Shown here piece by piece: positions 10,551-26,856 of a DNA stretch of 36,268 bases. The notes under the pieces are model-generated. The model searched no databases. It was not told the DNA's origin and saw only the letters and a list, made by a program, of their open reading frames with translations. A program made the position numbers and the translations under genes. Every line of letters starts with the position of its first letter. The first letter of the stretch is position 1. The stretch is from assembly GCA_026981855.1 (NCBI GenBank), contig JALSIB010000059.1:1-36268 (forward strand). Reading direction: 5' to 3'. Source of the stretch: Methylothermaceae bacterium (GTDB lineage Bacteria; Pseudomonadota; Gammaproteobacteria; Methylococcales; Methylothermaceae).

Positions 10551-13355
10551 ATGTCATCCATTCGCAACATCCCGATCGCCTTCTTCCTGGCGGCCGGGCT
10601 CATCTCACCTCTTCCCGCCACGGCCAAGGTCAACTGGATCGACAAACCCGTGGAGCATCCGGCGATCCCGCTGCTCGACGAGGACGGCAAGCATGTCCTC
10701 GAGAGCGGCAAGCCCTACAGTCCCCGCAAGAGCTGCGCCGGCTCCGGCTGCCACGACTACGACAAGATCACCAGCGCCTACCACTTCGAGATGGGGCGCG
10801 ACGAGGCCAATGACAAATTCGGCCTGTTCAACGATTTCCTGGGGGCCAAATCCCTGGTCAGCCCCGGCTGGTTCGGCGGCTTCAACTGCATGGGGGGCAG
10901 CATTCCCACCTTTCTCGCCAATAAAAACAACAGCTACAAGGAGATGATCCGCGACTACGGCGCCGCAGGCTTTATCGGCTGCTCCAGCTGCCACGTGGGC
11001 GGCGGCTTCGGGGAGAAGGACCGGGAAGGGATCCGCTACACCGAACGCGACCCCGCCACCATCCCGCCGTGGGACGGAGACTACTACAACCGTGGCAGCG
11101 ACGAGAACAACCAGAAGACCGACAAGAGCGTGGTCGCGAAATGGAACTGGCACAAGAGCGGGCTTCTGGAGGCGGACTGCATGTGGTGCCACATGAGTCC
11201 GGACGGTATCAGCGTGCCGGATGAACGCATGACGGGAAGCCGCGGCATCATGAGCGACTATCGCGGTGCCCGGCGGGAATTCATCAGCGGCGGTTGGTTT
11301 CGCTACGCCGCCAATACCGCCTGGGAATTCCTGCCCACGGTGGACGGCAAAAAACCCCTGACGGTGGAACGTGTCTGGGAGGACGAGGATTACACCCTGA
11401 AAACCGGCGAGGACGGCAACCCGGTCATTCACTGGAACCGGGAGGCCTTCGACGAGAACGGCCGTATCCACGTGAATATGATCCGCTTCCCGGAAAGCGA
11501 GAACTGCATGGCCTGTCACCGCACCAGCAACTCCCGCCGCGGTTTCTACGGCTACGGGGACGACGCCCGGATGGAGCTGGGCGAGGACGGCACCCTGGTC
11601 GAGGACTACAAGGACGACGTTCACAAGGGCGCGGACTTGGCCAAGTACTGGCACGGCGAATCGCGGGTGATGGACAATTGCAACGTCTGCCACAGCCACG
11701 CCTACCTCAAGACCCGGCACGAGAACATCAACCTGGATCAGGATCACAATTTCATGAAGGGAAATTCGGACATGGACATCCGCAACGACCTGGATTTCTC
11801 CGCCGACCTGCGCACCTGCGAATACTGCCATGTGGAAGGCAGAAACCCCGACGGCGAGAAACCCATCATCCCCTCGGGGCAGGAAACCATGCTGGCGGCC
11901 CACCTGGAGCGCTGGAAAAACAGCGGCTACATGACCGGCTACAGTCAGCAGAGCCTGAACCGTGTAGTTCAGACCCATTTCGACGTGCTCAACTGCCAGA
12001 CCTGCCACATCACCGGCAAACAGTCCCGGGGCAAGCCGCTTCAGATCATGTACCGCTACCGGGACGATGTGGACGGCAAGCGCAAGATCATCACCTACAA
12101 TCCGCGGCTGCGTTATCTCTGGATCGATACCGTCACCGGCTGGGCGCTGACCCGTTACGAGCGGGGCCTGGTGGCGAAAAAGCAGCTGGACGAAGAAGGC
12201 AACGAAATCAAGGACGGGCGCAACTTCGTCTTCGACATCTTCGACCCGGAAACCGGCGAAAAACTGCCTGGATCCGTACTCGGGCGGGTTTCCCACGGAT
12301 CGATGCGGCTGGGTGACCCCACCGGCGCCGACGGTTATCGCTCCCTCAAGCGCGCCTACGACAAGCTGATGAAGCTGCGCCACGGGCCCCAGCTGAAGGG
12401 GCGCCAACCGGACGTGAAACTGGTATGGCTCGAATCCAACGAGTACATCATCTCCCACAACGTCCGTCCGGCGGCCGACGCGGTTCCCTGCGGCGACTGT
12501 CACGCGCAAAAGCAAAGCGGCGCCTACAGCTCGCTGCTGAAGACCGACGGCATCCTGGGCCCGGGTCACGTCAAGGAAGTGGCCACCCTGCCGGATCCGA
12601 AACTGGTGGAAGAAGGCGTGGTCGTTTTGGGCATGCCCTACATGCGCATCGACGAGAACGGCACCATCACCGAGAACGAGGAAGACATCCTCTTCACCAC
12701 CCTGGTGGATCCATTCATGACCATCAACGCCGCAACCAGCAGCCGGTTCTTCGGCGGGGCGTTGCAGCGGATGGACGTGGCCACGGCGGCCCGCAAGGCG
12801 CGCCTGGACGCAGGCTTGCTGGAACGGGCGGTGGCCCAGCACGGCGGCGATGCCCACTTCCATGTGCTGATCCCGCGCTACGGTCGTGAAACGCTTCGGA
12901 ACAGCCTGGTGGCGCTGCCCGGCAACACGGTCACCGACGCCCTGGCGCCCAAATGGCGGACCGAACTGCTGCTGTTCCAGCGCTCCCCCCACCTGACGGG
13001 ACTGATCCGGGATCGCGGATTCGGAAATCTGGCCTCCGACGTGGTCAAGACCTCCTTCCTGGACGACCGCAAGCGGCCCATGGAGAATCTCCTCGGCAAC
13101 CGGATGCTGGTGAAACTGCCCTACCAGGGAAGAGCCACCGGCAAGGATGGAATCGAGGTTCTGATCTCGACCGACGGCCGGGAAATCCATCGTATCGATC
13201 CCAACGACGTGCTGCTGTTCGTGCCTTCCGCTGCAGACAGCGATGGCGTCCGCCTGCCGGGATCGACCCTGACCGATCCCGTCTCATCCACGGAAAACGG
13301 CTATGTCCTGTTCCTGACGGATCAGCCGGGCTTCTTCGCGGTAGCCGATCTGTAA
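10551..13355 (+). CDS. Octahaem c-type cytochrome, large
   Basis: This 934-residue exported protein carries eight c-haem motifs: one CX4CH at Cys62 (CAGSGCH) and seven CXXCH at Cys144, 210, 319, 377, 423, 482 and 647. The signal peptide (MSSIRNIPIAFFLAAGL... cut after ATA, residue 25) sends it to the periplasm or beyond. The haems are widely spaced, and about 280 residues after the last one have no haem, so the protein is more than a simple electron carrier and could have a catalytic or surface-binding part. A strong GGAGGAG precedes the ATG. A clear terminator follows, so the gene can be transcribed alone. I do not recognise an enzyme family; tetrathionate-reductase-type octahaem proteins are much shorter. 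Confidence 0.9.
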   Translation: MSSIRNIPIAFFLAAGLISPLPATAKVNWIDKPVEHPAIPLLDEDGKHVLESGKPYSPRKSCAGSGCHDYDKITSAYHFEMGRDEANDKFGLFNDFLGAKSLVSPGWFGGFNCMGGSIPTFLANKNNSYKEMIRDYGAAGFIGCSSCHVGGGFGEKDREGIRYTERDPATIPPWDGDYYNRGSDENNQKTDKSVVAKWNWHKSGLLEADCMWCHMSPDGISVPDERMTGSRGIMSDYRGARREFISGGWFRYAANTAWEFLPTVDGKKPLTVERVWEDEDYTLKTGEDGNPVIHWNREAFDENGRIHVNMIRFPESENCMACHRTSNSRRGFYGYGDDARMELGEDGTLVEDYKDDVHKGADLAKYWHGESRVMDNCNVCHSHAYLKTRHENINLDQDHNFMKGNSDMDIRNDLDFSADLRTCEYCHVEGRNPDGEKPIIPSGQETMLAAHLERWKNSGYMTGYSQQSLNRVVQTHFDVLNCQTCHITGKQSRGKPLQIMYRYRDDVDGKRKIITYNPRLRYLWIDTVTGWALTRYERGLVAKKQLDEEGNEIKDGRNFVFDIFDPETGEKLPGSVLGRVSHGSMRLGDPTGADGYRSLKRAYDKLMKLRHGPQLKGRQPDVKLVWLESNEYIISHNVRPAADAVPCGDCHAQKQSGAYSSLLKTDGILGPGHVKEVATLPDPKLVEEGVVVLGMPYMRIDENGTITENEEDILFTTLVDPFMTINAATSSRFFGGALQRMDVATAARKARLDAGLLERAVAQHGGDAHFHVLIPRYGRETLRNSLVALPGNTVTDALAPKWRTELLLFQRSPHLTGLIRDRGFGNLASDVVKTSFLDDRKRPMENLLGNRMLVKLPYQGRATGKDGIEVLISTDGREIHRIDPNDVLLFVPSAADSDGVRLPGSTLTDPVSSTENGYVLFLTDQPGFFAVADL

Positions 13356-14955: not shown

Positions 14956-16218
14956 ATGCGCCGCACGCTGGTTTTGACGGGGTGGATGTTGATGACGGGC
15001 GGGGCATGGGGCGCGAACATCAGCGCCTCTCTGGAAACGAAGTTCCAGGTGGACAACCGTTTCAACGCCAGCCCCCGCTTTCTTGGTGAATTATGGGGGG
15101 ATGCCGAAATCCTGTCCACCCAGTCGGACTGGCGCGCCCATTTTTCCTGGGCCGGCCGGCTTTCGAGCCTGAGCGATGACAGTGGCGGCAAGCTTTATCA
15201 GGCTTTCGTGGAGAAACACTGGAAATTTCTCCAGTCCGCCGTCCGGCTGGGACGGTTCCAACGGGCCGACCTGTCCGGTCTCTATTTTCTCGACGGCGGC
15301 CAACTGGACTACCGGATCGGTGACTGGAGAATGCAATGGTACGGCGGCAGGCCGATGCGGGCCGACAACGTTCGCAGCCTGGAAGGCGACTCCGTCCATG
15401 GCGTTCGGCTTGGATACGACCGAACCGTGCACCGGCGGTGGGGCGCCCTGACCTGGGAACGCTACCGGTTCAACGCCGAATATCAGGCGTTCCGCAACAA
15501 CGGACTTTCCCGCAGGCTCCAGGGAGCGGCCTCCCTGCAAGGCCGTATCGGCGACCGGCGATCCTGGGAAAGCACCCTCACGGCCACTTACCGTTTCGAC
15601 CGCGCCCGTTTCGAGGACGTCTGGTTCAGCGGCTTCGTGGATCTCACCGCCACCTTGCGTTTCCGCACCCACTATGAATATTACCGCCCCCGCTCCCCCT
15701 TCCCCTCATTCCGGGAGCGTTTCACCAGCGCCTACGCCCTGGAAGAACAAAGCCTTTTCCGGGCCGAACTGCATCACCGCCCCACCGCCCGGCTGCATTA
15801 TTTCATCGGCGGTCAACGGGCCACCAAGGCGGATGGATTCGATGGTTTCGGTATCCGGGGCGGGGGAGACTACCGCTGGCGCGACAGCACTTTCGCCCTC
15901 ACCTGGGATTATCTGGAAATCGGCGCCGACCGCGCCCACAGCGGTTACGCCCGGATCGTCCAGGCGATCGATTCCCGCCTCGAGATATGGGCCAACGCCG
16001 CCGTCAGACGGGAGGAAAAGCTGCTCTACGGCGTCAACTGGGCGCGTGGGGGCGAAACCGGATTCCGCTTTCTGCTGGACGGCAACTGGGTGATTCTCAC
16101 CAGCCTCTCCTACATCGCCAACAGCCGCCGCAAGGACGATTACGTCGGCGCCGTCCGGGTCATCTATTATCTGGACCGCTTTCAACCCAAGGGGAAGACA
16201 TGCGCCTGGTTGTGCTGA
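14956..16218 (+). CDS. Outer-membrane beta-barrel protein, probable porin of a porin-cytochrome conduit
   Basis: From the ATG at 14956 the protein has 420 residues. A signal peptide (MRRTLVLTGWMLMTGGAWG, then ANISASLET) is followed by strands with alternating hydrophobic and polar residues, many aromatic and Arg residues, and short turns, as in outer-membrane barrels; examples are RFRTHYEYYRPRSPFP and WRDSTFALTWDYLEIG. No haem motif or plug domain is present. It overlaps the heptahaem gene by 19 bp. In porin-cytochrome systems (Mtr, Geobacter Omb) a barrel holds a multihaem protein, so this pairing is suggestive. Sequence similarity to MtrB was not recognised. The last residues do not end in the usual aromatic, which is odd. 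An upstream open frame was rejected because it overlaps the previous gene. Confidence 0.75.
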   Translation: MRRTLVLTGWMLMTGGAWGANISASLETKFQVDNRFNASPRFLGELWGDAEILSTQSDWRAHFSWAGRLSSLSDDSGGKLYQAFVEKHWKFLQSAVRLGRFQRADLSGLYFLDGGQLDYRIGDWRMQWYGGRPMRADNVRSLEGDSVHGVRLGYDRTVHRRWGALTWERYRFNAEYQAFRNNGLSRRLQGAASLQGRIGDRRSWESTLTATYRFDRARFEDVWFSGFVDLTATLRFRTHYEYYRPRSPFPSFRERFTSAYALEEQSLFRAELHHRPTARLHYFIGGQRATKADGFDGFGIRGGGDYRWRDSTFALTWDYLEIGADRAHSGYARIVQAIDSRLEIWANAAVRREEKLLYGVNWARGGETGFRFLLDGNWVILTSLSYIANSRRKDDYVGAVRVIYYLDRFQPKGKTCAWLC

Positions 16219-16790
16219 TGACATTGCTCGCCTGGCTGACCACCGCGGCGACGGCGGAGAAAAAGGACAAAAGCTGGTGGAAAAAACGCGAGGAAAGAAA
16301 ACCGGACATCTATTTCCCCCACAACGTCCACATGGACATCATGAAGCAGGAAGGGGACATGTGCATGCTGTGCCATTCCTATCAACCCACCCGGGAAACC
16401 GACCCGGAAAAACTGCGGGCCATGACGGAAGTGCTCAACGAGCCCCTCAAGGAAGTCTGCCACGACTGTCACGTGGTGGAACGCCGGGCCCCCTGGCGCT
16501 GCAACATCTGCCACCCGGACAAAACCAAGATCTGGCCCTCCGATCACGATTTCGGCTATGTCCAGCACCATGGCGCCACCGCCCGCAAGGACGAAAAGGC
16601 GTGCCGCGAATGCCACCTGGAACTGTCTTTCTGCACCGACTGCCATTTCCGCCGGGAAATTTCCGGCATCGGTTATCACCCCTTGGGCTATGTCACCCTC
16701 CATGGCATGGAGGCTCGCACCATGCCTTCCAACTGCGGCCGCTGCCACAACAACTTCTACTGCGACGAGTGCCACAGGAGGCGGCGATGA
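16200..16790 (+). CDS. Heptahaem periplasmic c-type cytochrome
   Basis: A compact 196-residue protein with a signal peptide (MRLVVLMTLLAWLTTAATA) and seven CXXCH motifs at Cys55, 87, 101, 135, 145, 179 and 188. That is one haem per about 25 residues of mature protein, dense enough for a continuous haem wire. Non-motif histidines between them (e.g. HDFGYVQHHG, HPLGYVTLHG) could supply the second axial ligands. It begins inside the barrel gene and its stop overlaps the next start (ATGA). By position it is the best candidate for the cytochrome that sits in, or docks to, the barrel; decahaem MtrA plays that role in Shewanella. It is smaller than MtrA, so the conduit model is inference. Confidence 0.9.
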   Translation: MRLVVLMTLLAWLTTAATAEKKDKSWWKKREERKPDIYFPHNVHMDIMKQEGDMCMLCHSYQPTRETDPEKLRAMTEVLNEPLKEVCHDCHVVERRAPWRCNICHPDKTKIWPSDHDFGYVQHHGATARKDEKACRECHLELSFCTDCHFRREISGIGYHPLGYVTLHGMEARTMPSNCGRCHNNFYCDECHRRRR

Positions 16791-17746
16791 AACGTGGCAT
16801 TCTCCTCTTCTCCCTGTTGCTGCTCTGCTTCCCGGCGCTGGCGGTCAAGACCGTCGATGTTTCCCTGAAGCGGGGCCAATTGCTGTTGACCAAGCGCCAT
16901 GAAGGCTGGGGGAAGTCCCGCTGCCAGGCCTGTCATGTACTGAACATGATCCACCAGGACGCCCCCCGTATCCGGGGCATCGTCCGCAAAAAAGGCTTCA
17001 AGACCTGTGGCGGCTGCCACGGAGACAACGGAACCGACACCCGGCGCCGTTGCCTGATCTGCCACAACGACCGCGATCTTCCCGCCGCCCCCTGGCAGAC
17101 TGGAATCCATACCCATGATTTCGATCGCCTGGAAGACCGGCCGCTGACGGATGGCGATTGTCTCGCCTGCCATCACGCCTCCGACATGGACGGTGAATGG
17201 GAACTGGACGTGGACCTGACCCGCTTTCCCGATGCCGCCGGCTTTTCCGGGCCCTACCGCCACGAATCCGAATTTTGCCTCACCTGCCACAATCGCACCC
17301 ATCAACAGCCCGGATTCGAAATGCGCGGGCGCGATTACCGTGATCCCCTGATCGCCATCGAAGACGCCTGGCGCCATATCGACATGCACGGCAGGCGGGC
17401 GGGCAGCGGCCGGCGCACCTATGCCGGATTGCGGGAACCTTACCGCTACGGCTCGGTGCTGCGTTGCACCGACTGTCACGCCATGCACGGCACCGACAAC
17501 CCGAAACTGATCCTCGACGACAGCCGCAAGAGCGTCTTTCTGCTGCCCTTCCGGGACCAGGGCATCGGCGTGGAAATATTCGGGATAGGCGACTATTCCC
17601 AGTTGTGCGTCCTCTGCCACCAGATGACGGTTCCGGTGGAAGACGGACTGATCGATACCGGCAACGGCTTGTACGGCGTGCACGAGGTCGGCGCCGACTG
17701 CACTCTGTGCCACACCCACGGGCGGGCGGCCCAGGTCGGCCTGTGA
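16787..17746 (+). CDS. Octahaem periplasmic c-type cytochrome
   Basis: A 319-residue exported protein (signal peptide MKRGILLFSLLLLCFPALA) with eight CXXCH motifs at Cys46, 74, 89, 125, 164, 227, 274 and 305. A perfect AGGAGG lies five bases before the ATG, which overlaps the preceding stop. Spacing of haems is looser in the centre (Cys164-227), where a segment rich in Arg, Gly and Tyr lies. No catalytic motif is recognised. It is probably a soluble or membrane-associated electron carrier of the conduit. Its TGA shares one base with the ATG of the next gene. Confidence 0.9.
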   Translation: MKRGILLFSLLLLCFPALAVKTVDVSLKRGQLLLTKRHEGWGKSRCQACHVLNMIHQDAPRIRGIVRKKGFKTCGGCHGDNGTDTRRRCLICHNDRDLPAAPWQTGIHTHDFDRLEDRPLTDGDCLACHHASDMDGEWELDVDLTRFPDAAGFSGPYRHESEFCLTCHNRTHQQPGFEMRGRDYRDPLIAIEDAWRHIDMHGRRAGSGRRTYAGLREPYRYGSVLRCTDCHAMHGTDNPKLILDDSRKSVFLLPFRDQGIGVEIFGIGDYSQLCVLCHQMTVPVEDGLIDTGNGLYGVHEVGADCTLCHTHGRAAQVGL

Positions 17747-18795
17747 TGCGGGGCAATCGCATGAACCGGTTTCCCCCTCTCCCTCCGGGAGAGGGGCCGC
17801 GGGTGAGGGAGATAAATTCCCGCTTTTGCCGGTTCGGGCCCTCATTCCAACCCCTCTCCCAGAGGGAGAGGGGCTTTAATACTGGACAAAACCAACCTTT
17901 TCCGGCAAGGGGAGGTGGATACGCCGGTTGGCTGATTGTGCTGGCTCTCGCACTGCCCTCATCCTACGCCCGTGAAGACACGCCAAAGCTCCCGCCCCAT
18001 CACCATCTGGTGGAAATCAAGATTCCCGAAACCATGGAAGTGAATCCGCTTTTGCCCCTGAAAACCGGCCGGAAGCTGGAATGCCCGGTCTGCCACGGCA
18101 TCGAGGACATCGACGAAAAGGATTTCGACAAGGTGGACAAACAAGACCCCCGATTCCTGCGCGGCGGCCCTTATCCCGACCTTCAGGCGTTTTGCTTCAA
18201 TTGCCACGACGAGGAAAAGCACCAGCGTCCCAACATCCACGCGATGCTCGACGAACAGGGTGAAATCATCGAGGACCATTGCACCTATTGTCACCAGGAG
18301 AAACCCGACCGGGACAAGGCCCAATCCCTGCAAGAAATCAAGCTGCGGGCGCCGGTGGATACCTTGTGCTGGGGTTGTCACCTGAAAACACCCCATCTCA
18401 ACGCCGCCGAACACCAGGTGGAACCTTCCGACAAGGTCAAGGAACAACGCAAACGCTTTCTCGAAACCCACCCGGAGGTCATCCTGCCGTTGACCGAAGA
18501 CGGCAAGGTCACCTGCATCACCTGTCACACGCCGCACCCGCCGGGCGTGCTGGACGACAAACTGCCCGCCGCCCATCAGGCCACATCGGGCAAGGTCGAT
18601 GAGGGGCCGGTCTATGAAGACAGTCCCTGGGCGGCGACCATCGCCGCCGACAAGCGGGAAAGACTGGAAGCACTGGCCCGCAAATACGGCCGGCCCTTTC
18701 CTTTCCGTTACCGTCAGATTCAGAGAGAAACCCTGCTCCGGCTGCCGGCCAAGGATGGACAACTGTGCCGGGCCTGTCACGCATTCGACGAATAG
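17746..18795 (+). CDS. Hexahaem c-type cytochrome with a REP element read through its leader
   Basis: Six CXXCH motifs lie at Cys113, 150, 179, 208, 257 and 341 of a 349-residue product. The signal-peptide core (WLIVLALALPSSYA, residues 62-75) is preceded by about 60 residues, most of them the translation of a REP element (the run includes PPLPPGEG and LSQRERG). The likely native start is the ATG at 17746, which shares one base with the upstream TGA, the coupling style of its neighbours. No usable in-frame start with a Shine-Dalgarno exists between the REP and the hydrophobic core; a GTG at 17938 lies too far from the AGGGGAGG at 17908. The leader is thus abnormally long, and export may be impaired or the start different from mine. 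Confidence 0.82.
   Translation: MRGNRMNRFPPLPPGEGPRVREINSRFCRFGPSFQPLSQRERGFNTGQNQPFPARGGGYAGWLIVLALALPSSYAREDTPKLPPHHHLVEIKIPETMEVNPLLPLKTGRKLECPVCHGIEDIDEKDFDKVDKQDPRFLRGGPYPDLQAFCFNCHDEEKHQRPNIHAMLDEQGEIIEDHCTYCHQEKPDRDKAQSLQEIKLRAPVDTLCWGCHLKTPHLNAAEHQVEPSDKVKEQRKRFLETHPEVILPLTEDGKVTCITCHTPHPPGVLDDKLPAAHQATSGKVDEGPVYEDSPWAATIAADKRERLEALARKYGRPFPFRYRQIQRETLLRLPAKDGQLCRACHAFDE
17774..17873. repeat. REP/BIME element inside the hexahaem gene leader
   Basis: Two hairpins with identical stems: CCCCTCTCCC (17774-17783) with GGGAGAGGGG (17787-17796), and CCCCTCTCCC (17851-17860) with GGGAGAGGGG (17864-17873), with 3-nt loops TCC and AGA. Between them GGGTGAGGG (17801-17809) pairs with CCCTCATTCC (17839-17848). 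This two-unit inverted layout is a bacterial interspersed mosaic element. It keeps the reading frame open. Confidence 0.92.
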
Positions 18796-18808: not shown

Positions 18809-19825
18809 ATGAACATACGAGCCATCGAACGCTGGAAAAAAGTCCCCGGCATGCAGAAATACCGCTATGGCATCATCGCCCTCTCCTGCCTGGCCTTTCT
18901 CGGCCCCCTGGCGTTCCTGCCACAACTGGTGGGCAGCAAGGATCTGTGCGGCGAACTGTGCATGCGAAGGTTCTACCTGTATTTTCCCGGCATGACCTGG
19001 GAGGATTTGTGGATGCACGTCTCGGTGGCGTGGATCGGGGTGATCGCCTTTTTCACCATCATCACCGTGACTTTCTTCTTCGGCCGCATCTGGTGCTCCT
19101 TCATCTGCCCGGTGGGCGGCATGGCGGAACTGGGCAGCCGGGCCATCGGCGACCGCTGGAAAATCGAATTCCGCGCCCTGCCCCAGGTGCCGATCCGCTA
19201 TGGTTACCTGGCCGCCTATATGGTGTTGCTGCCGATGCTGGGGGTCAGCGCTTGCACCCTGTGCAATTTTGTCACCGTGCCCCGGTTCGTGGACGCCCTG
19301 TTCGGCGGCGCCACCGGCATCGCCTTTTTGTTTTCGGTGGTGGGACTGACCAATCTGAGCCTGCTGCTGCTCATGGGATTTTTTTCAAGCAAGGGCCGGG
19401 CCTATTGCCAGCTCATGTGTCCCATCGGCGCCCTGGACGCCCTGGTCAACCGCCTCGGCGCCAAGTTCCGCTTCACCTATCATATCCGGGTGGAACGCAG
19501 CCGCTGCACCGGCTGTAACGAATGCGCCAAGGCCTGCATGTGCGGCGCCATCAAGATGGTGGACCGGATCGCCACCGTGGACCAGACTTCCTGCATGTCG
19601 TGCCACGACTGCGTCGATGTCTGCGAATGGCATGCCATCGAGTGGACGCCGGGGCCGCGCAAGAAACAGCCCAAGCGGATCAAGCGCGGCATCGAAATCT
19701 ATCCCGAACCCCAGTGGGAGGCCTTTGCCCCGGCACCCGCCATCAACCGCAGCCGGGTCATCAACGGTCTGATCATCTCCTTCATGATTCTCTTCATCGC
19801 CGCCACCACATGGTTGAAATTCTGA
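18809..19825 (+). CDS. NapH-like polyferredoxin membrane protein
   Basis: A 338-residue inner-membrane protein with about five transmembrane helices (near 20-42, 68-92, 130-152, 165-190 and 315-336). It has two CX3CP motifs at Cys96 (CSFICP) and Cys200 (CQLMCP), and two ferredoxin-type [4Fe-4S] sites at Cys233 (CTGCNECAKAC) and Cys262 (CMSCHDCVDVC). This is the architecture of NapH/NosR/CcoG-type proteins; NapH passes electrons from quinol toward periplasmic cytochromes. AGGAGG precedes the ATG by seven bases. The CMSCH here looks like a haem motif but is the iron-sulphur site. Its end overlaps the flavo-cytochrome fusion gene by 16 bp, suggesting the two products work together. Confidence 0.92.
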   Translation: MNIRAIERWKKVPGMQKYRYGIIALSCLAFLGPLAFLPQLVGSKDLCGELCMRRFYLYFPGMTWEDLWMHVSVAWIGVIAFFTIITVTFFFGRIWCSFICPVGGMAELGSRAIGDRWKIEFRALPQVPIRYGYLAAYMVLLPMLGVSACTLCNFVTVPRFVDALFGGATGIAFLFSVVGLTNLSLLLLMGFFSSKGRAYCQLMCPIGALDALVNRLGAKFRFTYHIRVERSRCTGCNECAKACMCGAIKMVDRIATVDQTSCMSCHDCVDVCEWHAIEWTPGPRKKQPKRIKRGIEIYPEPQWEAFAPAPAINRSRVINGLIISFMILFIAATTWLKF

Positions 19826-22722
19826 AAGCTTTATTGTTTTTCCTGACGCTGTGCCTGGGCCTCCAATCCGCCCAGGCCATGGAACGCCACAGCGACCCGG
19901 ACGGCTGCTTTTCCTGTCACGGCCTGCCGGGGCTGGAATTCATCGACAAGGACGGGGTGCGCCGGGTCGCCACCATTTTGCAAAAGGACTACTACGGCTC
20001 CCTCCACGGCAGCGTTCCCTGCCGGGATTGTCACCGCAAGATCGAGGACTACCCCCACGACCCCAAGAATGGCTATGTGGACTGTTCCCAGTCCTGCCAC
20101 CTGGAGGAGCCCTCCGAAGGCAAGCCTTTCAGCCACAAGGACGTGACCAGGGAATTCAAGAAATCGGTCCACGGCAGCGGCAAGAAAGCAGGGGCCACCG
20201 ACGGCTTTCACGGTGGCAACCGACTGAAGGAAGTGGAACGGGAACAAAATCCCTCCTGCCGCCGCTGTCACTACAACGAACCCTACATCAAGCCCGCCCA
20301 GATGGCCCGGTTCCAGGAGATGTTCCACCATGTGGACAGCGAATGCGGCGTCTGCCATCAGGGGGAAGTGTGGCGCAACCAGTTCGGCGGCCACATCCTG
20401 CGCCGCCTGATCGGCAAGCACTACAGCAAGCAGGACAGCAACGCCATGTGTATCGGCTGTCACGGCGACCGGGAGGCGATGGAAAAGGCCGAAATCGAAG
20501 ATCCGGAAACCGGCGACCTGAAGCCGGTGGAAAAACGCTTCCTGTTCGTGGTGGACAGCTACCAAAAAATGCTGCACGGACGCCTGCTGGCCGTCGATGT
20601 GGAAGACAGCGCTTCCTGCCTGGACTGTCACGCCCCCCTGGGGGAAGGGTACCGCCATGGCATCCAGCGGGATGAAAAGCCCACCTCCCCCACCCACGCG
20701 GACAACCTCCCCGACACCTGCGGCCAGTCCGGCTGTCACGCAGGCTATGCCCACAACACCCTGAGCGAAGGTTTCCTCCTCACCGACGTGCACGACCTCA
20801 ACCAAGTGCAGGTGACGAAACTGCTGGCGGCGGGCATCTCCCTGGACGATCTGCCGCGGCCGGGATGGCGGAACGCGCTGATCCTCCTGGGAAGCGGCTC
20901 GGCGCTTTTCGTTTTGGGGACGCTGCTTTGGTGGCTGCCGGGACGCCGGGAACAGAACCTCCCCATCCTCGGCGGTCTGTTCTTCCAGAAAAAAATGCTG
21001 GAGATGCATCCGCCGCCCCCCGCCTGGCGGAAGTGGCTCGGACAATGGATGGGGAAAACCGAGGGAGCGCCGGAAACCGGCAGCCCCGCCAAATCCGACA
21101 CCCTCACCATCCTGTACGGCTCCCAGACCGGTAACGGCGAGGGCGTCGCCGAAGCGCTGGCGCAGCTGGCCGAATCCTGGCAGCTGCCCTTCAAGCTGGT
21201 GAACATGGCCGAATTCGAGCCCCGGCGGCTGGCGGAAGAAGGGTACCTGTTCATCATCGTCAGCACCCAGGGGGAAGGCGAGCCGCCCCTCACCGCCATG
21301 ACGCTCCACGGCTGGCTCAAGGAGCTGGCGGACAAATCCCACGCTCACCCCCTGTTCCCGGATCTGCACTACGCGGTCTTCGGGCTCGGAGACAGCAGTT
21401 ACCAGTATTTCTGCCAATGCGGCAAGGATTTCGACGCTTTCCTGGAGAAGCTGGGGGCCGAACGGATCCTGCCCCGGGTGGACGCCGACGTGGATTACGA
21501 GGAGCCGGCGCAGTCCTGGATGGCCCAGGTCATCGGCCGTTACACCGAACTCAGCGGCAAGCCCGGTGTTCCCCCACCGCCGAAAAAGAAAAAAACCGCT
21601 GAGGAAGGGTTCGGCAAAAACCGCCCCTATCCCGCCGCGATTCTCCTGAACCGCAATCTCAACCAGGCGGGTTCGGCCAAGGAGACCCACCATCTCGAAA
21701 TCGACCTGGGAGACAGCGGCCTGACCTACGAGCCCGGCGACGTGGCCGGCATCTACCCCCGCAACGCCCCCGCCTACGTGGAAGCGCTGCTTCAGGCCCT
21801 GGACATGGACGGTTACGCCGAAGTGCGCCTCGGCCAGGAGACGATCACCCTGCGAGAAGCCTTCCACAGCCGCCTGGACATCACCACCCTGACCCGTCCG
21901 GTGGTGGAAAAATACGCCCGGCTCTGCGGCGACCCGGAACTCCAGGCGCTGCCGGAAGACGAAAAGCGGCTGAACGACTATCTGTGGGGGCGGCAGATTC
22001 TGGACATGATCGGGGAATATCCCCTGAAAAACGCCGATCCCCAGGCCTTCACCGACTGCCTGCGGCGGATGCCCGCCCGCCTCTATTCCATCGCTTCCAG
22101 CCCCCGGGCCCACCCCGGCCAGCTGCACCTGACGGTGGGGGCGGTCCGTTTCCGGACGCCCGGAGGAAGAACGGCGGAGGGCGTATGCTCCAATTACCTG
22201 GCGCGGATTCGACCCGGCCAGGCGGTGCCCTTGTACCTGCAAACCAACCCCCACTTCCGCCTGCCGAAAGCCCTCGATACCGACATCATCATGGTCGGCC
22301 CCGGTACCGGCATCGCCCCCTTCCGGGCGTTCGTGGAAGAACGGGAAGTCACCGGCGCCGGTGGCAGGAACTGGCTGTTCTTCGGCGACCAGCATCAGGC
22401 CACCGACTTCCTCTACCGGGAGGAATGGGAAGACAAACTGGAGCGCGGCATTCTGACGCGGCTGGATCTGGCGTTTTCCCGCGATCAGGACGAGCGCATC
22501 TACATCCAGCACCGGATGCTGGAAAACGCGGCACAGCTGTACGCCTGGCTGGAAGGCGGCGCCTATTTCTATGTCTGCGGCGATGCTTCGCGGATGGCCA
22601 GGGACGTTCACCAGACCTTGATCGATATCCTCGTTCGGGAGGGCGGTCTCGGCGAGGACGCCGCGGGCGACTATCTCAAAACCCTGGAACAATCGGGACG
22701 CTACCAACGCGATGTTTACTAG
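19810..22722 (+). CDS. Octahaem cytochrome fused through one membrane helix to a CysJ-type NADPH diflavin reductase
   Basis: This 970-residue protein has four parts. Residues 1-23 are a signal peptide. Residues 24-345 hold eight c-haem motifs: CXXCH at Cys33, 71, 150, 179, 214, 270, plus a CX3CH at Cys92 and a CX4CH at Cys304. Residues 355-378 are a single transmembrane helix, followed by positive residues (GRR, KK), so the C-terminus is cytoplasmic. Residues 430-970 form a complete sulphite-reductase-flavoprotein module: FMN flavodoxin (YGSQTGNGEG at 436), FAD site (RLYSIASSP, Tyr759), NADPH site (GPGTGIAPFRAF at 830), YFYVCGDASRMA, and the CysJ-like end RYQRDVY. NADPH electrons could thus be led to periplasmic haems. 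The helix has no His to hold a haem, so the route across the membrane is unclear; the NapH-like neighbour is the likely helper. Confidence 0.93.
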   Translation: MVEILKALLFFLTLCLGLQSAQAMERHSDPDGCFSCHGLPGLEFIDKDGVRRVATILQKDYYGSLHGSVPCRDCHRKIEDYPHDPKNGYVDCSQSCHLEEPSEGKPFSHKDVTREFKKSVHGSGKKAGATDGFHGGNRLKEVEREQNPSCRRCHYNEPYIKPAQMARFQEMFHHVDSECGVCHQGEVWRNQFGGHILRRLIGKHYSKQDSNAMCIGCHGDREAMEKAEIEDPETGDLKPVEKRFLFVVDSYQKMLHGRLLAVDVEDSASCLDCHAPLGEGYRHGIQRDEKPTSPTHADNLPDTCGQSGCHAGYAHNTLSEGFLLTDVHDLNQVQVTKLLAAGISLDDLPRPGWRNALILLGSGSALFVLGTLLWWLPGRREQNLPILGGLFFQKKMLEMHPPPPAWRKWLGQWMGKTEGAPETGSPAKSDTLTILYGSQTGNGEGVAEALAQLAESWQLPFKLVNMAEFEPRRLAEEGYLFIIVSTQGEGEPPLTAMTLHGWLKELADKSHAHPLFPDLHYAVFGLGDSSYQYFCQCGKDFDAFLEKLGAERILPRVDADVDYEEPAQSWMAQVIGRYTELSGKPGVPPPPKKKKTAEEGFGKNRPYPAAILLNRNLNQAGSAKETHHLEIDLGDSGLTYEPGDVAGIYPRNAPAYVEALLQALDMDGYAEVRLGQETITLREAFHSRLDITTLTRPVVEKYARLCGDPELQALPEDEKRLNDYLWGRQILDMIGEYPLKNADPQAFTDCLRRMPARLYSIASSPRAHPGQLHLTVGAVRFRTPGGRTAEGVCSNYLARIRPGQAVPLYLQTNPHFRLPKALDTDIIMVGPGTGIAPFRAFVEEREVTGAGGRNWLFFGDQHQATDFLYREEWEDKLERGILTRLDLAFSRDQDERIYIQHRMLENAAQLYAWLEGGAYFYVCGDASRMARDVHQTLIDILVREGGLGEDAAGDYLKTLEQSGRYQRDVY

Positions 22723-23494
22723 ACTGACTTTTCTGTTCCTGCTGACCTCATCCACCCTGGCATGGGGAGGGCGATCCTGGTTCGAGGGGCGCTACGAATC
22801 CGCCCACCCGACCGCGGAGGCGCGGCAAAAGGCGTTGGATCAGGTCAGGAAACACAAGGACGAAGTGGTGATCCGGGACGACCTGGACCGGAAACTGCCC
22901 ACCTTCCACAAGCGGCTGGAAAAAAAGGTGACCACCGGCGAAACCTTTTGCCAGAACTGCCATCTCCCCCTGCCTCACAGCAAAAAATTGCGCAGCCGGG
23001 CCTTCCTCAACATGCACAGCCGTTACATCGCCTGCGCCACCTGCCATCTTCGGCCGGAGGGGGTGCGTTTCGACTACCGCTGGCTGGATTACGCGTCCTG
23101 GCGCCCGGTCCGGCCCGATCACCCTTTTCGCACAGGACTGGACATCGACAATTCGATCCCGATCGACGGCAATCTGAAAATCGCCCCCTTCTTTTCCGGC
23201 GAACCGGCCATCCCCCCCAAGGACGGCCCCTTCGCCGAAAAAATCCTCCGGCGGTGGCGCGAAGGCACGCCGGCGCAACGGGCCGGGCTGAAAGCCCGCC
23301 TTCACGCTCCGCTGGAAGAAGAAGGGCCGGAATGCGTCGCCTGCCACACCAGCGACCGGCCCATGCTGGATCTGCAGGCGCTGGGGGCGGAGGCGGAGCA
23401 GGTGGATCTCATCCAGTTTCACCGCATACCGAGCTTTTTCAGCCGCTACCGAGGCGACGACGAGAAGCTGAAAATCATCGGCATCCTGCGTTGA
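22712..23494 (+). CDS. Trihaem c-type cytochrome
   Basis: A 260-residue exported protein (signal peptide MFTRLTFLFLLTSSTLAWG) with three CXXCH motifs at Cys80, 108 and 208. Large haem-free stretches before the first and between the second and third motif, rich in charged and aromatic residues, suggest a docking role rather than a bare wire. It overlaps the fusion gene by 11 bp and ends 16 bp before the next gene. No family recognised. It may link the membrane-bound fusion protein to the other periplasmic cytochromes; that is inference from gene order. Confidence 0.86.
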   Translation: MFTRLTFLFLLTSSTLAWGGRSWFEGRYESAHPTAEARQKALDQVRKHKDEVVIRDDLDRKLPTFHKRLEKKVTTGETFCQNCHLPLPHSKKLRSRAFLNMHSRYIACATCHLRPEGVRFDYRWLDYASWRPVRPDHPFRTGLDIDNSIPIDGNLKIAPFFSGEPAIPPKDGPFAEKILRRWREGTPAQRAGLKARLHAPLEEEGPECVACHTSDRPMLDLQALGAEAEQVDLIQFHRIPSFFSRYRGDDEKLKIIGILR

Positions 23495-23510: not shown

Positions 23511-26168
23511 ATGAAGGCGTTCACGGCCATCCTGCTGTTGCTCCTGGCGTTGCCGGCCCACCCCCTGCCCAGGGTCGTGGAGCGGACGCCCCTGCCCGGA
23601 TCGTTCGATCACCCCACGGCGGTCGCCATCGGACCCGATCGATCCCTGTACCTCCTCGACGCCCGTTCGCGCCTTGTCAAAATACTCCCCGGGGGAACCG
23701 TCCGGGCTCTGGTCACGGAAGGGCTCTCCCGCCCCCTGGATCTGAAATGGGGCGAAAGCGGGCTGTGGGTGACCGATACCGGCCATCATCGTTTGCTGAG
23801 ATTCGACGAAACCGGCAAACTGCTGCAAACCATCGACCTGAAACCACCCCCCTGCCCGGAAGAAACCCCGGATTGCCGCTTCCCGCCGCCGGAACCGGTG
23901 GCGGTGGCGGAGGTGGACCAGATTCTGTTCTGGGCCGACCGCCGCAGCCATCACGTCTGCCGGTTACAGCTGCCGGAAGGCGAACGCCTGGATTGTTTCG
24001 GCGGACGGGGCGAGGAAGGGGGAAAATTCCAGTCTCCGTTTCAAATGGTCATCGACCGGGACAAGTTCCTCCATGTGACGGACATCCTCAATGGCAGGAT
24101 CCAGATTTTCGACAAGGACGGCCGCTTCTTCCGCCAACAGGGCCGCTTCGGCCTCGACAGCGGAGAGCTGTTCCGCCCCAACGGCCTGGCCATCCGGCGC
24201 GACCTGGACCGGCTCTTCGTCAGCGACGGCTATTTCGGCACCCTCACCGTCTTTCAGGACGGCGAGCCCCTGGGGTGGCTCAAGGATCGCCAGGGACGCC
24301 CCATCCACTTCGAAAGCCCCACCGGCCTGGCATATCACGACGGAACGCTGTACGTCGCCGACACCGGCGGCAACCGGATTTGGCGGCTCAAACTGGAGGA
24401 AACCGAATCCGCCGGCGCCGCGGCGGAAAAGAGGCCGCGGGCCACCGTGGACGTTTCGCGGAAAAACTGCCTGCTCTGTCACCTGGAATGGGCGAAGGAA
24501 GGGGGGCCGGCCGTCAAGGAACCGGACGAACAGGGTGTCATGCCCGTGGCTTCCTACCGGATGTGCTACAGCTGCCACAACGGGCCGGTGATGGATTCGC
24601 GGGGCGTCATCGATGCCGGCGGCCAGCACCCGGTCGTCTACGAAGCGGAAAAGGACAAAAAGCGCCACGCCGAACTCTGGCCACGCCGGGAAAAACTGCC
24701 GGACGACCTGTTTCCCCTCACCCGCGACCACCAACTGACCTGCACCAGCTGCCACACCCCGCACGAGGACAGCGAATCCCCCACCCTGTACCCCGGCCAC
24801 GAAAACGCCTGGCTGCGGGTGCCCAACCCCGACGGCAAACTGTGTGAGCGCTGCCACAAATCCAAGGCCGAAACGGCCCGGGAACGGCGGCTCCGGCGGA
24901 AGGGCCGCAATCACCCTCTCGGTTTTCATCTTTCCCCGCCTCCCTACCGGGGCGCGCCCAATCATTCCGCCGACTCCCACCTCCATCACGGGTTGCCGGA
25001 CACGCTGGCCAAAAAGGGCGGCAGCCTGGACCCCGAAGGCCGGATGATCTGCCAGAGCTGTCATCAGATCCACGGCGGCGTCGGCCAAACGCTGCTGCTG
25101 ATGGCCGACGACCGCGGCCAACTGTGCCGCCAGTGCCACAAACGCCAATTCAGCGAAAACAAAAAAGCGGCCCGCCGCAAAGGGATACATCCGGTCAACA
25201 TCGAACCGGACGAAGAGATGGAACGGGACGGGGAAAAGGTCCGGTTCGTCACCTGCACCAGTTGCCACCCGGTCCACGACGGCAAACCCGGCACCCCCAT
25301 GTTGTCGAAACCGGCCCCGGATCTGTGTCACGACTGCCACCGGCGCCAGCACGCCAGGGACAAGGAAGACGCCTTGAAAAAAGGGGTCCACCCGGTCAAT
25401 TTCGACCTGGAAGAACCCGTGACCCTGCACGGCAAAAAGGTCGAACACGTGGATTGCCTGACCTGTCACGCGGTTCACCGGGGCAAGCCCGATACCCCGG
25501 CCCTGGTGGCCGATCATCACGACGGCCAACTCTGCCGCGCTTGCCATGAAGACAACCTGCCGGTACTGGGCAGCGACCACGACCTGCGCATCACCGCCAA
25601 GGACAGCCAGAACGGATTGGAAGAAAGCCCCCGCCAGTCCGGATTGTGCGGCGCCTGCCACACCCTTCACCGGGGCAAGGGAAAGTGGCCTTATTTGTAT
25701 GCGGCCACCCTCGTGGACGATCCTTCCCGCCCCTCCCCGGAAGGAGATCAAACCCCCTTCAAGCGGGATCGGCTCTGCCTCAACTGCCATCAGGACCATC
25801 CCCGGGCGGTGGGCAAGGAAAAATTCATCGAATTTTTCAGCCATCCCTACAAACAGATCGTATTGCGTTCGGATGAAACCCAAATGCCGCTCCTCGGCGA
25901 GGACGAATCCGACCGGCCCACCGGCGCCATCGGCTGCGCCACCTGCCACGACCCCCACGTCTGGCAGCCGGATCACCGCAACCAAAAACAACCACCCCTG
26001 GCCGCCAACCGCGACAACCTGGAAGGCGACCCCCACTCCAGTTTTCTGCGCTTCACCCGCCCGGAAAAGACCTTCTGCCTGGATTGCCATGGCAAGGAAA
26101 CCCGGGTCAAATTTCTCTATTTCCACGACAAGGACAACGCCAGGGGGAAAGTGGATTACCTGGAATGA
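23511..26168 (+). CDS. NHL beta-propeller with a 14-haem cytochrome domain
   Basis: An 885-residue exported protein. After a signal peptide (ending near AHP) come about 290 residues of NHL-type repeats, e.g. HPTAVAIGPDRSLYLLD, SPTGLAYHDGTLYVADTGGNRIW, which form a six-bladed propeller. From Cys320 to Cys856 there are 14 CXXCH motifs, several followed by repeated HPV-like or HTPH-like segments, an internal duplication pattern of cytochrome c family modules. NHL-cytochrome fusions occur near outer-membrane cytochrome clusters in Geobacter-type bacteria. The propeller may bind a surface ligand or another protein. Only a weak GGAA precedes the ATG at 23511, but the 16-bp gap to the previous gene fits operon transcription. 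Last gene of the cytochrome operon. Confidence 0.92.
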   Translation: MKAFTAILLLLLALPAHPLPRVVERTPLPGSFDHPTAVAIGPDRSLYLLDARSRLVKILPGGTVRALVTEGLSRPLDLKWGESGLWVTDTGHHRLLRFDETGKLLQTIDLKPPPCPEETPDCRFPPPEPVAVAEVDQILFWADRRSHHVCRLQLPEGERLDCFGGRGEEGGKFQSPFQMVIDRDKFLHVTDILNGRIQIFDKDGRFFRQQGRFGLDSGELFRPNGLAIRRDLDRLFVSDGYFGTLTVFQDGEPLGWLKDRQGRPIHFESPTGLAYHDGTLYVADTGGNRIWRLKLEETESAGAAAEKRPRATVDVSRKNCLLCHLEWAKEGGPAVKEPDEQGVMPVASYRMCYSCHNGPVMDSRGVIDAGGQHPVVYEAEKDKKRHAELWPRREKLPDDLFPLTRDHQLTCTSCHTPHEDSESPTLYPGHENAWLRVPNPDGKLCERCHKSKAETARERRLRRKGRNHPLGFHLSPPPYRGAPNHSADSHLHHGLPDTLAKKGGSLDPEGRMICQSCHQIHGGVGQTLLLMADDRGQLCRQCHKRQFSENKKAARRKGIHPVNIEPDEEMERDGEKVRFVTCTSCHPVHDGKPGTPMLSKPAPDLCHDCHRRQHARDKEDALKKGVHPVNFDLEEPVTLHGKKVEHVDCLTCHAVHRGKPDTPALVADHHDGQLCRACHEDNLPVLGSDHDLRITAKDSQNGLEESPRQSGLCGACHTLHRGKGKWPYLYAATLVDDPSRPSPEGDQTPFKRDRLCLNCHQDHPRAVGKEKFIEFFSHPYKQIVLRSDETQMPLLGEDESDRPTGAIGCATCHDPHVWQPDHRNQKQPPLAANRDNLEGDPHSSFLRFTRPEKTFCLDCHGKETRVKFLYFHDKDNARGKVDYLE

Positions 26169-26223: not shown

Positions 26224-26856
26224 ATGAATCCAAAACAACCACGCCGGCCATGGCCGTACACAGCCGCCATGGCCATGATGCTCGTCATGCAGCTGTGCGT
26301 TCCCGCCTTCGCCACCGCCATCCGGCAGGTGGGGATGGACGAAATGCTTCGGCGCTCGCAGCTGGTTTTCGAGGGTGTCGTCACCGGAAGGCGGGTTTTG
26401 ACCACCGCCGGCGGACGCCCCTACACCGAGGTCACCTTCCGGATCGTCGACATCATCAAGGGGCGATGGGCGAAAGACAGCATCCGGCTTTCCTTCCTGG
26501 GAGGCGACCTGCCCGGCAAAAGCCTGCGGCTTCGGGACATGGTCTACCCGGAGCTTGGCGAACACGGCGTCTATTTCGTCGAGAGCACGGAAAAACGTCT
26601 GATCAATCCCTTGTACGGCTGGTCGCAAGGCAGGTTCCTGGTGGCCCGGGACGGCAACGGGCATGAAAGGGTCGAGACGGCGGACGGGCAGCAGGTGACG
26701 GCCCTCCACTTCGGGGACGGCAACGATACGGAAAGGCTCAGTCGGGGCGTCGCCAAGGGCGTGAGGGTGAAACGCCAGGCGCTGGGCGGAGAGGCGATGT
26801 TCCTGTCCGACTTCAAGGCGCAGCTGCGCCGGCAAGCGGGGGGGCGGGAACCATGA
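26224..26856 (+). CDS. Secreted protein of unknown function, partner of the matrixin
   Basis: A 210-residue protein with a signal peptide (AAMAMMLVMQLCVPAFA, cut before TAIRQ). The mature part begins with QVGMDEMLRRSQLVFEGVV, followed by beta strands such as YTEVTFRIVDIIKGRW. That pattern (an early 'a-d-vf-G-V' strand then 'f-V...iKG') recalls small secreted proteins seen near metallopeptidases, but I do not know a family name and none is claimed. It has no catalytic motif or haem. AGGA lies eight bases before the ATG. The stop overlaps the matrixin start by four bases (ATGA), so the two are coupled and probably act together, perhaps as an inhibitor, chaperone or substrate. Confidence 0.82.
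   Translation: MNPKQPRRPWPYTAAMAMMLVMQLCVPAFATAIRQVGMDEMLRRSQLVFEGVVTGRRVLTTAGGRPYTEVTFRIVDIIKGRWAKDSIRLSFLGGDLPGKSLRLRDMVYPELGEHGVYFVESTEKRLINPLYGWSQGRFLVARDGNGHERVETADGQQVTALHFGDGNDTERLSRGVAKGVRVKRQALGGEAMFLSDFKAQLRRQAGGREP

What the first reader, a model, noticed from the sequence alone, without database searches (positions are those of the whole stretch)
19810..22722. Inner-membrane NADPH diflavin reductase fused to a periplasmic octahaem cytochrome
One polypeptide joins a signal peptide, eight c-haems, one membrane helix and a complete CysJ-type FMN/FAD/NADPH module with its RYQRDVY end. Positive residues after the helix put the flavin part in the cytosol. I know of no well-studied enzyme with this build. 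It would tie the NADPH pool directly to periplasmic haems, bypassing the quinone pool. The helix has no histidine, so a haem cannot carry the electron across; this gap calls for a partner.
Basis: partly seen in the sequence, partly recalled or inferred. Interest (0 to 1): 0.93.

Follow-up and report, generated by a model that had tools for sequence, protein, structure and literature searches.

The report
NADPH-fed octahaem wire in methanotrophs
A methane-eating bacterium carries one protein that joins an NADPH-using flavin enzyme inside the cell to a chain of eight haems outside the inner membrane, probably together with an iron-sulphur partner, which would give metabolism a direct line for pushing electrons out of the cell.

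Summary
Window 19810-22722 encodes 970 residues: signal peptide, eight c-haem sites (six CXXCH, one CX3CH, one CX4CH), one His-free membrane helix and a complete CysJ-type FMN/FAD/NADPH module. It is no assembly error: 13 distinct genomes have the fusion (Methylothermaceae, Methylococcus including M. capsulatus Texas, other Methylococcaceae MAGs, one Nitrosomonas MAG). It lies in a conserved gene cluster with an outer-membrane barrel-like protein and six more multihaem cytochromes. By gene order and haem count this is the known copper-repressed cytochrome operon of M. capsulatus Bath, a strain with measured extracellular electron transfer. The octahaem part without CysJ is more widespread. None of 11 fusion genomes tested has a CysI partner, so sulphite assimilation is unlikely. 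Best model: NADPH, flavins, NapH-like Fe-S centres, octahaem, outer-membrane conduit. Electron path, direction and quinone bypass are untested; structure predictions were too weak to help. New variant of a known kind.

The parts
10551..13355 (+). Large (934 aa) multihaem cytochrome, 7 CXXCH; first gene of the conserved cluster; its likely Methylococcus counterparts (by gene order, inferred) are MCA0424/MCA0426, detected at the cell surface
   Evidence: surface detection in PMC4831470
13580..14629 (+). Protein with acidic NDDSGNS-type repeats and a C-terminal monohaem cytochrome c domain; among the loci compared a homologue was found only in L030
14902..16218 (+). Outer-membrane beta-barrel-like protein (start uncertain, 14956 possible); no Pfam or NCBIfam match; conserved place in the cluster
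   Evidence: [quoted passage not shown]
16200..16790 (+). Multihaem cytochrome, 7 CXXCH
16787..17746 (+). Multihaem cytochrome, 8 CXXCH
17746..18795 (+). Multihaem cytochrome, 6 CXXCH (start uncertain)
18809..19825 (+). NapH-like membrane Fe-S protein (338 aa, five predicted helices), proposed partner; overlaps the octahaem gene by 16 bases
18947..18961 (+). CGELC, predicted periplasmic cysteine pair 1 of the NapH-like protein (Cys46/Cys50, counted without the initiator Met)
19094..19108 (+). First CX3CP motif (Cys95/Cys99), predicted cytosolic side
19253..19264 (+). CTLC, predicted periplasmic cysteine pair 2 (Cys148/Cys151)
19406..19420 (+). Second CX3CP motif (Cys199/Cys203), predicted cytosolic side
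19505..19624 (+). Two-[4Fe-4S] ferredoxin domain of the NapH-like protein, predicted cytosolic
19810..22722 (+). The fusion: octahaem cytochrome c - membrane helix - CysJ-type NADPH diflavin reductase (970 aa)
19810..19878 (+). Signal peptide (residues 1-23), read by eye from the sequence
19906..20739 (+). Octahaem stretch, first to last haem motif (residues 33-310)
20863..20934 (+). Single membrane helix without His (about residues 352-375)
20959..21006 (+). Juxtamembrane motif ILGGxxFqxxM; a loose form of it found in 60 of 65 rows, with and without CysJ
21109..21513 (+). FMN-binding flavodoxin domain (PF00258)
21613..22197 (+). FAD-binding domain (PF00667)
22291..22611 (+). NADPH-binding domain (PF00175)
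22712..23494 (+). Trihaem cytochrome
23511..26168 (+). NHL beta-propeller plus 14-haem cytochrome

Best explanation
The protein is the NADPH entry point of an electron-export machine. NADPH reduces FAD and then FMN in the cytosolic CysJ-type module. The FMN domain, on a linker of some 50-60 residues, passes single electrons to the ferredoxin domain of the NapH-like membrane protein encoded just upstream. Paired cysteines on the inner and outer faces of that protein (two CX3CP motifs inside; Cys46/50 and Cys148/151 outside) carry them across the membrane, probably as Fe-S centres, to the octahaem domain, which is held at the membrane by its own helix and by the NapH-like protein. From there they go through the periplasmic multihaem proteins and the outer-membrane conduit to extracellular acceptors such as Fe(III), and possibly Cu(II), under copper or oxygen limitation. 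Shown here: sequence, conservation, fusion, gene order, absence of a CysI partner. Inferred: topology, electron order, Fe-S nature of the extra cysteines, outward direction, acceptor.
For: Complete FMN/FAD/NADPH module, aligned end to end with E. coli CysJ, in 13 distinct genomes (one, G102, cut inside CysJ by its contig end). The 12 complete fused CysJ domains form one side of a branch, 99/98, in a 41-row tree, consistent with one origin. CysI (TIGR02041) is missing from 11 of 11 fusion genomes tested (best 63 bits against a cut-off of 757). The NapH-like gene is found in 97 of 98 loci (not in L124); in 24 of 98 (duplicates included) NapH and octahaem are one ORF, whose junction helix takes the place of the signal peptide. 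16 Cys invariant in 39 of 39 rows, and in 92 of 92 of a set with duplicates; E. coli NapH has 12 of them and lacks the four outer ones. Octahaem: 24 of 24 motif Cys/His and eight further His (66, 83, 109, 121, 195, 256, 283, 328) invariant in 65 of 65 rows, as for eight bis-His haems. Conserved cluster with barrel and multihaem genes. In M. capsulatus Bath the cluster rises under copper limitation, and cells reduce ferrihydrite and electrodes with formate, more when copper-starved.
Against: No biochemistry. The octahaem-NapH pair occurs without CysJ in the stretch held in 78 of 98 loci (54 as separate genes, 24 as one ORF; duplicates included), so CysJ cannot be its only possible donor. NapH homologues are described as quinol dehydrogenases, and at most eight Fe atoms were found in NosR, which the authors of PMC5928378 take to favour disulphides over a cluster at CX3CP (passages). 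Both AlphaFold models are weak (pLDDT 61.8 and 68.3; under 50 around both outer Cys pairs and much of the ferredoxin domain), so no cysteine or haem distances could be checked. MCA0431 as the Bath counterpart is inferred from gene order and haem count; the Bath sequence was not read. The one gene deleted in Bath, MCA0421, lies outside this operon and its loss lowers the current only partly. The Bath authors lean to uptake of reducing power rather than export. In G096/L064 the trihaem and NHL genes were not found within the stretch held.
Confidence: 0.57

Rival explanations
1. The NapH-like/octahaem pair is a quinol:cytochrome oxidoreductase, as NapH modules are elsewhere, and the CysJ domain is an added input or output: NADPH electrons enter or equilibrate with the quinone pool through the NapH-like protein rather than bypass it.
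For: [quoted passage not shown] Most homologous loci have no CysJ in the stretch held, so another donor, plausibly quinol, must exist there.
Against: The protein scores 68 and 58.6 bits against NapH models with cut-offs of 213 and 234 and has four extra invariant outer cysteines, so quinol oxidation by it is not established. It does not by itself explain why a complete NADPH module was fused and kept.
Confidence: 0.25
2. The direction is inward: electrons from extracellular donors reach NADP+ and supply NADPH, for example for methane oxidation under copper limitation.
For: Tanaka et al. 2018 propose that reducing power is short under copper limitation and that outer-membrane cytochromes let cells acquire it. 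Diflavin reductases are in principle reversible (recalled).
Against: Uphill in potential to about -320 mV (established value) and against the membrane potential, with no coupling subunit recognised in the operon; the measured currents and Fe(III) reduction are outward.
Confidence: 0.06
3. A membrane-tethered CysJ that serves a cytosolic acceptor such as sulphite reductase, the haem part being a mere anchor.
For: The domain is closest to CysJ among the NCBIfam models (TIGR01931, 648 bits).
Against: No CysI in 11 of 11 fusion genomes tested; their best matches to the CysI model, proteins in frames of about 550-608 aa with NIR_SIR domains, score only 42-63 bits; the CysJ match starts at profile position 55, without the N-terminal part; the fusion lies in a cytochrome operon.
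Confidence: 0.04
4. Assembly or sequencing error that joins two genes.
For: The window lies in a 60-contig draft assembly.
Against: Same join in 13 distinct genomes, four of them (G003, G021, G041, G048) single-contig assemblies given as 100% complete; continuous codon composition.
Confidence: 0.01

Closest known systems
E. coli sulphite reductase flavoprotein CysJ (TIGR01931; PDB 6efv)
   Same: Whole FMN-FAD-NADPH module aligned end to end, same C-terminal DVY
   Different: Fused behind a membrane helix and an octahaem domain; lacks the first 54 profile positions; below the curated cut-off (648 vs 668); no CysI in the 11 fusion genomes tested
NapH / NosR / RdhC membrane module (CX3CP proteins)
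   Same: Two CX3CP motifs, four membrane helices, and (as in NapH) a two-[4Fe-4S] domain
   Different: Fifth helix; four extra invariant cysteines predicted on the periplasmic side; fused to or beside an octahaem protein; far below NapH cut-offs
Methylococcus capsulatus Bath copper-repressed cytochrome operon starting at MCA0424
   Same: By gene order and haem count the same operon (eight multihaem genes, barrel; 58 CxxCH reported)
   Different: The paper lists MCA0431 as a multihaem cytochrome; none of the passages or sections read describes an NADPH module joined to it or the NapH-like partner's cysteines
Porin-cytochrome conduits (MtrCAB) with quinol-linked inner-membrane cytochromes (CymA, CbcL, ImcH)
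   Same: Works like them: inner-membrane cytochrome feeding periplasmic haems and an outer-membrane conduit; the haem part has a marginal match to an MtrC/MtrF domain (PF22113, 30.6 bits, cut-off 30)
   Different: The input is an NADPH flavoprotein, not a quinol site; no NapC/NirT domain in the fusion protein; the barrel has no Pfam match
Eukaryotic NADPH ferric reductases / NOX (recalled)
   Same: Works like them: cytosolic NADPH-FAD module drives electrons across a membrane to haems and outside acceptors
   Different: Those cross the membrane on two b-haems held by His in the helices (recalled); here the helix has no His and a separate Fe-S protein is proposed

Membership tests
CysJ (assimilatory sulphite reductase flavoprotein) | FMN, FAD and NADPH domains in one chain | tested here: met
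   PF00258, PF00667, PF00175 all over cut-off
CysJ (assimilatory sulphite reductase flavoprotein) | Score above the curated equivalog cut-off (TIGR01931, 668.15) | tested here: not met
   648.4 bits, 650.1 in the genome scan
CysJ (assimilatory sulphite reductase flavoprotein) | CysI partner encoded in the genome | tested here: not met
   0 of 11 fusion genomes over the cut-off; best 63 bits of 757. Two further fusion genomes (G102, the L066 MAG) were not searched
NapH | Two CX3CP motifs and two [4Fe-4S] ferredoxin motifs | tested here: met
   All 12 cysteines align with E. coli NapH
NapH | Score above curated NapH cut-offs | tested here: not met
   68 of 213 (TIGR02163) and 58.6 of 234 (NF007013)
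NapH | Quinol oxidation | not testable with these tools
   Needs biochemistry
Porin-cytochrome extracellular electron conduit | Outer-membrane barrel with periplasmic and extracellular multihaem cytochromes in one cluster | tested here: inconclusive
   Gene content fits and is conserved, but the barrel protein has no Pfam or NCBIfam match
NapC/NirT-type quinol-oxidising cytochromes (CymA) | Cytochrom_NNT domain in the membrane cytochrome | tested here: not met
   Not among the six Pfam matches of the fusion protein; the neighbouring six-haem protein has a sub-threshold match (21.6 bits, cut-off 24.1)
NOX/FRE-type NADPH reductases | Transmembrane b-haems with His in the helices | tested here: not met
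   No His in the helix of the window protein; none in 62 of 65 rows
HAO-like octahaem cytochromes | Shared octahaem fold | tested here: inconclusive
   VIA-align Z 5.4 to HAO, rmsd 4.9 over 202 residues, best of 20 chains, on a model of pLDDT 68
HAO-like octahaem cytochromes | One catalytic haem with an open site | tested here: inconclusive
   Eight invariant non-motif His suggest all eight haems are six-coordinate, but pairing was not modelled

The most novel reading that the evidence does not exclude
A transmembrane electron wire made of Fe-S centres in a NapH-like protein links cytosolic NADPH straight to c-haems and, through an outer-membrane conduit, to the outside of the cell, without quinone, haem b or proton pumping: a bacterial counterpart of NADPH ferric reductases that reaches beyond the outer membrane.
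Probability: 0.42. Interest if true: 0.87.

Novelty: new variant of a known kind. Interest (0 to 1): 0.72.

Why it matters
The bacterial extracellular electron-transfer entry proteins named in the passages seen (CymA, CbcL, ImcH) work on the quinone pool. A direct NADPH input would couple carbon metabolism, where formaldehyde and formate oxidation yield NAD(P)H (established), to outside metal or electrode reduction, and would fit the finding that M. capsulatus reduces Fe(III) with formate yet does not grow on it. It names a gene pair, in a model methanotroph for which a deletion method has been published, for the open question of how electrons enter this pathway. The NapH-like protein with its extra outer cysteines would also be a test case for how NapH, NosR and RdhC modules carry electrons across membranes.

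Tried and rejected
Sequencing error: rejected by 13 distinct genomes with the same join. Sulphite assimilation: set aside, no CysI in the 11 fusion genomes tested; G102 and the L066 MAG were not in that search. C-terminal fusions of other kinds: long open frames of 661-791 aa in class-level hits first looked like other reductase fusions; they proved to be NapH-octahaem in one frame. Other CysJ fusions: in the phylum sample 24 listed CysJ frames besides the window's exceed 1000 aa; I fetched 15 of these 24 and three shorter ones, and none of the 18 has a CXXCH; by eye they looked like P450 or nitrate-reductase fusions (naming recalled, no family search). The other nine, and a 1443-aa frame in G093, were not examined.

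Structures: AlphaFold models of the NapH-like protein (39 rows, pLDDT 61.8) and the octahaem part (65 rows, pLDDT 68.3) were too weak to test cysteine or haem distances, and coordinates are not readable in the box. Foldseek against the PDB gave nothing at E 0.001 or better for either. Profile search of the PDB gave nothing at E 0.01 for the octahaem part; for the NapH-like protein the 44 matches fall on its ferredoxin region. VIA-align on 20 chains gave HAO at Z 5.4, below the level I would trust.

The Methylobacter anode cluster of PMC13322032 (passages only) was considered as the same system and set aside: it is described there as a four-gene MtrA/MtrB-type cluster. The Nitrosomonas MAG locus L066 may be misbinned or horizontally acquired; its flanks (a formaldehyde-type dehydrogenase, a phosphatase and a transposase-like frame, named by eye) do not decide it. 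The region upstream of the cluster was only looked at; no Fur box was tested for.

The CysJ tree used 12 of the 13 (L063 is cut at its contig end). The octahaem tree used seven fused rows; there the fused group needs two changes of label and is one clade in 39% of bootstrap trees, because unfused L067 falls among them.


Full report
Observation. The open frame 19810-22722 encodes 970 residues. After a signal peptide come eight haem-attachment sites, six CXXCH, one CX3CH and one CX4CH, then one hydrophobic helix without histidine, a motif ILGGLFFQKKM, a linker, and FMN, FAD and NADPH domains all over their Pfam cut-offs. The C-terminal 545 residues align with E. coli CysJ over nearly their whole length (6efv, E 1.8e-135). 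GC at third positions is 0.81, 0.79 and 0.82 in the haem, linker and flavin parts.

Is it a real gene? Searching 301 genomes of the order with the first 425 residues gave matches in 56 of 301, some of them weak paralogues. Twelve of these, the window's own included, carry the CysJ part in the same frame: G000, G005, G018, G030, G038, G003, G017, G021, G041, G048, G096 and G102 (the last cut by its contig end). A scan of named genome contigs gave 72 loci; six of 72 are fused: two Methylothermaceae MAGs, two Methylococcaceae MAGs, Methylococcus capsulatus Texas and a Nitrosomonas MAG; a few others (L124, L128, L129, L131) are too short to tell. The window's genus contains a Methylothermaceae MAG (G030/L061) 88% identical over the haem part, so the host is most likely a Methylothermaceae methanotroph. 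In the class sample 17 of 369 genomes match at E 1e-10; of the five closest outside the order, four are complete and lack CysJ (L051-L054) and one is cut (L055).

The ancestral form probably has no CysJ. In most loci the octahaem protein ends soon after the helix with a lysine-rich tail. A loose form of the juxtamembrane motif is present in 60 of 65 rows, with or without CysJ, so it seems older than the fusion. In a 41-row tree the 12 fused CysJ domains form one side of a branch (99/98). In the 65-row octahaem tree the seven fused rows and one unfused one (L067) form a supported set (99/95), and the fused rows alone are one clade in 39% of bootstrap trees. A single gain of CysJ is the simplest reading, with a later loss or an early branch for L067.

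The cluster. The gene stands in a conserved run: large heptahaem cytochrome, barrel-like protein, cytochromes with 7, 8 and 6 CXXCH, NapH-like protein, octahaem(-CysJ), trihaem cytochrome, NHL propeller with 14 haems; in the window an extra repeat/monohaem protein lies second. In G096/L064 the last two were not found in the stretch held. From the barrel to the NHL gene five of seven junctions overlap and the other two have gaps of 13 and 16 bases, which suggests one transcript; the first two genes are set off by 242 bases and by roughly 270-330 bases, depending on the start of the barrel gene. The cytochrome genes of the window carry 52 CXXCH motifs (53 counted less one in the ferredoxin motif of the NapH-like protein).

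The partner. The NapH-like gene is found in 97 of the 98 loci examined (not in L124), and NapH and octahaem form a single ORF in 24 of 98 (duplicates included), in MAGs labelled Chromatiales, Gammaproteobacteria, Beggiatoa/Thioploca-type, Sedimenticola and, once, Acidobacteriota; there the last helix of the NapH part leads straight into the first haem motif, in the place of the signal peptide. Sixteen cysteines are invariant in 39 of 39 rows and in 92 of 92 of a larger set with duplicates. Twelve align with E. coli NapH: two CX3CP motifs and two ferredoxin motifs. Four do not: Cys46/Cys50 and Cys148/Cys151 (numbers without the initiator Met), in loops that hydropathy and charge place on the periplasmic side. 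Whether these hold Fe-S centres is unproven; for the related NosR the iron content argued against clusters at CX3CP (passage).

The haem part. In 65 rows all 24 motif Cys/His are invariant, and so are eight further histidines (66, 83, 109, 121, 195, 256, 283, 328); His174 is kept in 64 of 65. Site 8 is CXXCH instead of CX4CH in four Beggiatoa/Thioploca-type rows. This fits eight bis-His, electron-carrying haems with no catalytic site, though pairing was not modelled.

What it is not. Among 15 genomes searched for CysI, the 11 with the fusion have only weak matches (at most 63 bits, cut-off 757), as has G012 without it; G008 and G011 have CysI over the cut-off (864 and 800 bits) and G026 just under it (749). 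The fused CysJ therefore has no recognisable sulphite-reductase partner in those 11. It also lacks the first 54 positions of the CysJ profile.

Known biology of the operon. In Methylococcus capsulatus Bath, Larsen and Karlsen (PMC4831470; passages and the whole Discussion section seen) describe a putative operon of eleven genes from MCA0424 on, with eight multihaem cytochromes and 58 CxxCH motifs. Its listed cytochromes rise 2.3- to 8.6-fold in sMMO-producing, copper-limited cells (MCA0431 4.3-fold), MCA0424 and MCA0426 are found in the surface fraction, and MCA0427 is a barrel; [quoted passage not shown] The M. capsulatus Texas locus has complete frames with 7, 7, 8, 6, 6, 3 and 14 motifs (51) plus a second large-cytochrome frame cut by the locus edge with 4, which agrees with 58 if that one has 7. 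MCA0431 is therefore, by order and count, the likely counterpart of the fusion; this is inference. Ward et al. [quoted passage not shown] Tanaka et al. 2018 (PMC6281684, parts 1-3 of 4) show that Bath reduces ferrihydrite and an anode with formate, more strongly when copper-starved, and that deleting MCA0421 (just outside this operon) lowers the current from 118 to 86 nA per square cm. They call the physiological meaning unclear and propose redox homeostasis, leaning to uptake of reducing power when copper is short; the parts read name no inner-membrane entry point.

Mechanism. The best reading is NADPH, FAD, FMN, ferredoxin domain of the NapH-like protein, its inner and outer cysteine sites, octahaem, periplasmic cytochromes, outer-membrane conduit. 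Shown: domains, conservation, fusion events, neighbourhood, no CysI in 11 genomes. Inferred: sidedness, order, nature of the cysteine sites, direction. Outward flow is downhill from NADPH (-320 mV, established) and with the membrane potential, conserves no energy by itself, and fits the absence of growth on Fe(III). The main rival keeps the quinone pool in the path, because NapH modules are described as quinol dehydrogenases and because most relatives have no CysJ.

Novelty. Literature searches for multihaem with CysJ, sulphite reductase flavoprotein, flavodoxin and NADPH, and for six MCA locus tags, showed no paper that describes this fusion (listings only, capped at 20 of 36 and 10 of 66, and passages where stated; open-licence papers only). 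Searches on NapH and on outer-membrane cytochromes likewise showed none in their listings. NapH followed by an octahaem protein has a precedent in one ANME-2c genome (PMC9012536, passages). I rate it a new variant of a known kind: an extracellular electron-transfer operon, already known in outline, whose inner-membrane module has an NADPH input that I found described nowhere in these searches.

Noticed in passing
L203:13285-15477 (own genome, contig C43:135284-137476) and L203:3339-13204: A second CysJ fusion: a molybdopterin-dinucleotide-binding domain (PF01568, 36 bits, cut-off 26.8) joined to a full CysJ module (730 aa), divergent from what look by eye like two formylmethanofuran hydrolase-type (fhc/fwd) gene sets, the nearer with a cysteine-bearing FwdB-like protein. 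It may be an NADP-linked, redox-active formylmethanofuran dehydrogenase in a methanotroph; in the tree its CysJ domain lies next to the octahaem fusion's.
   Followed up: partly
L072, L077, L084, L101, L118-L123 and others: In MAGs labelled Chromatiales, Gammaproteobacteria, Beggiatoa/Thioploca-type, Sedimenticola and one Acidobacteriota the NapH-like and octahaem proteins are a single polypeptide.
   Followed up: yes
L066: The whole cluster with the CysJ fusion in a contig binned as Nitrosomonas (GC 0.49): horizontal transfer or misbinning.
   Followed up: partly
L056-L060: Distant octahaem paralogues (about 28-34% identical, 7 CXXCH plus one CX3CH) that end in a basic tail at about 370 residues; whether they have the membrane helix was not tested; no NapH-like gene in the short loci held.
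   Followed up: no
window 13580-14629: Acidic NDDSGNS-repeat linker in front of a monohaem cytochrome c domain; among the loci compared a homologue turned up only in L030. Perhaps a flexible surface tether.
   Followed up: no
window 26853-28169: Matrixin-type metallopeptidase (PF00413) downstream of the cytochrome cluster, one unassigned frame away.
   Followed up: no
window 8990-10294 (minus strand): Protein with a signal-peptide-like start (by eye) and a pyruvate phosphate dikinase AMP/ATP-binding domain (PF01326), divergent from the cytochrome cluster; odd for an exported protein.
   Followed up: no
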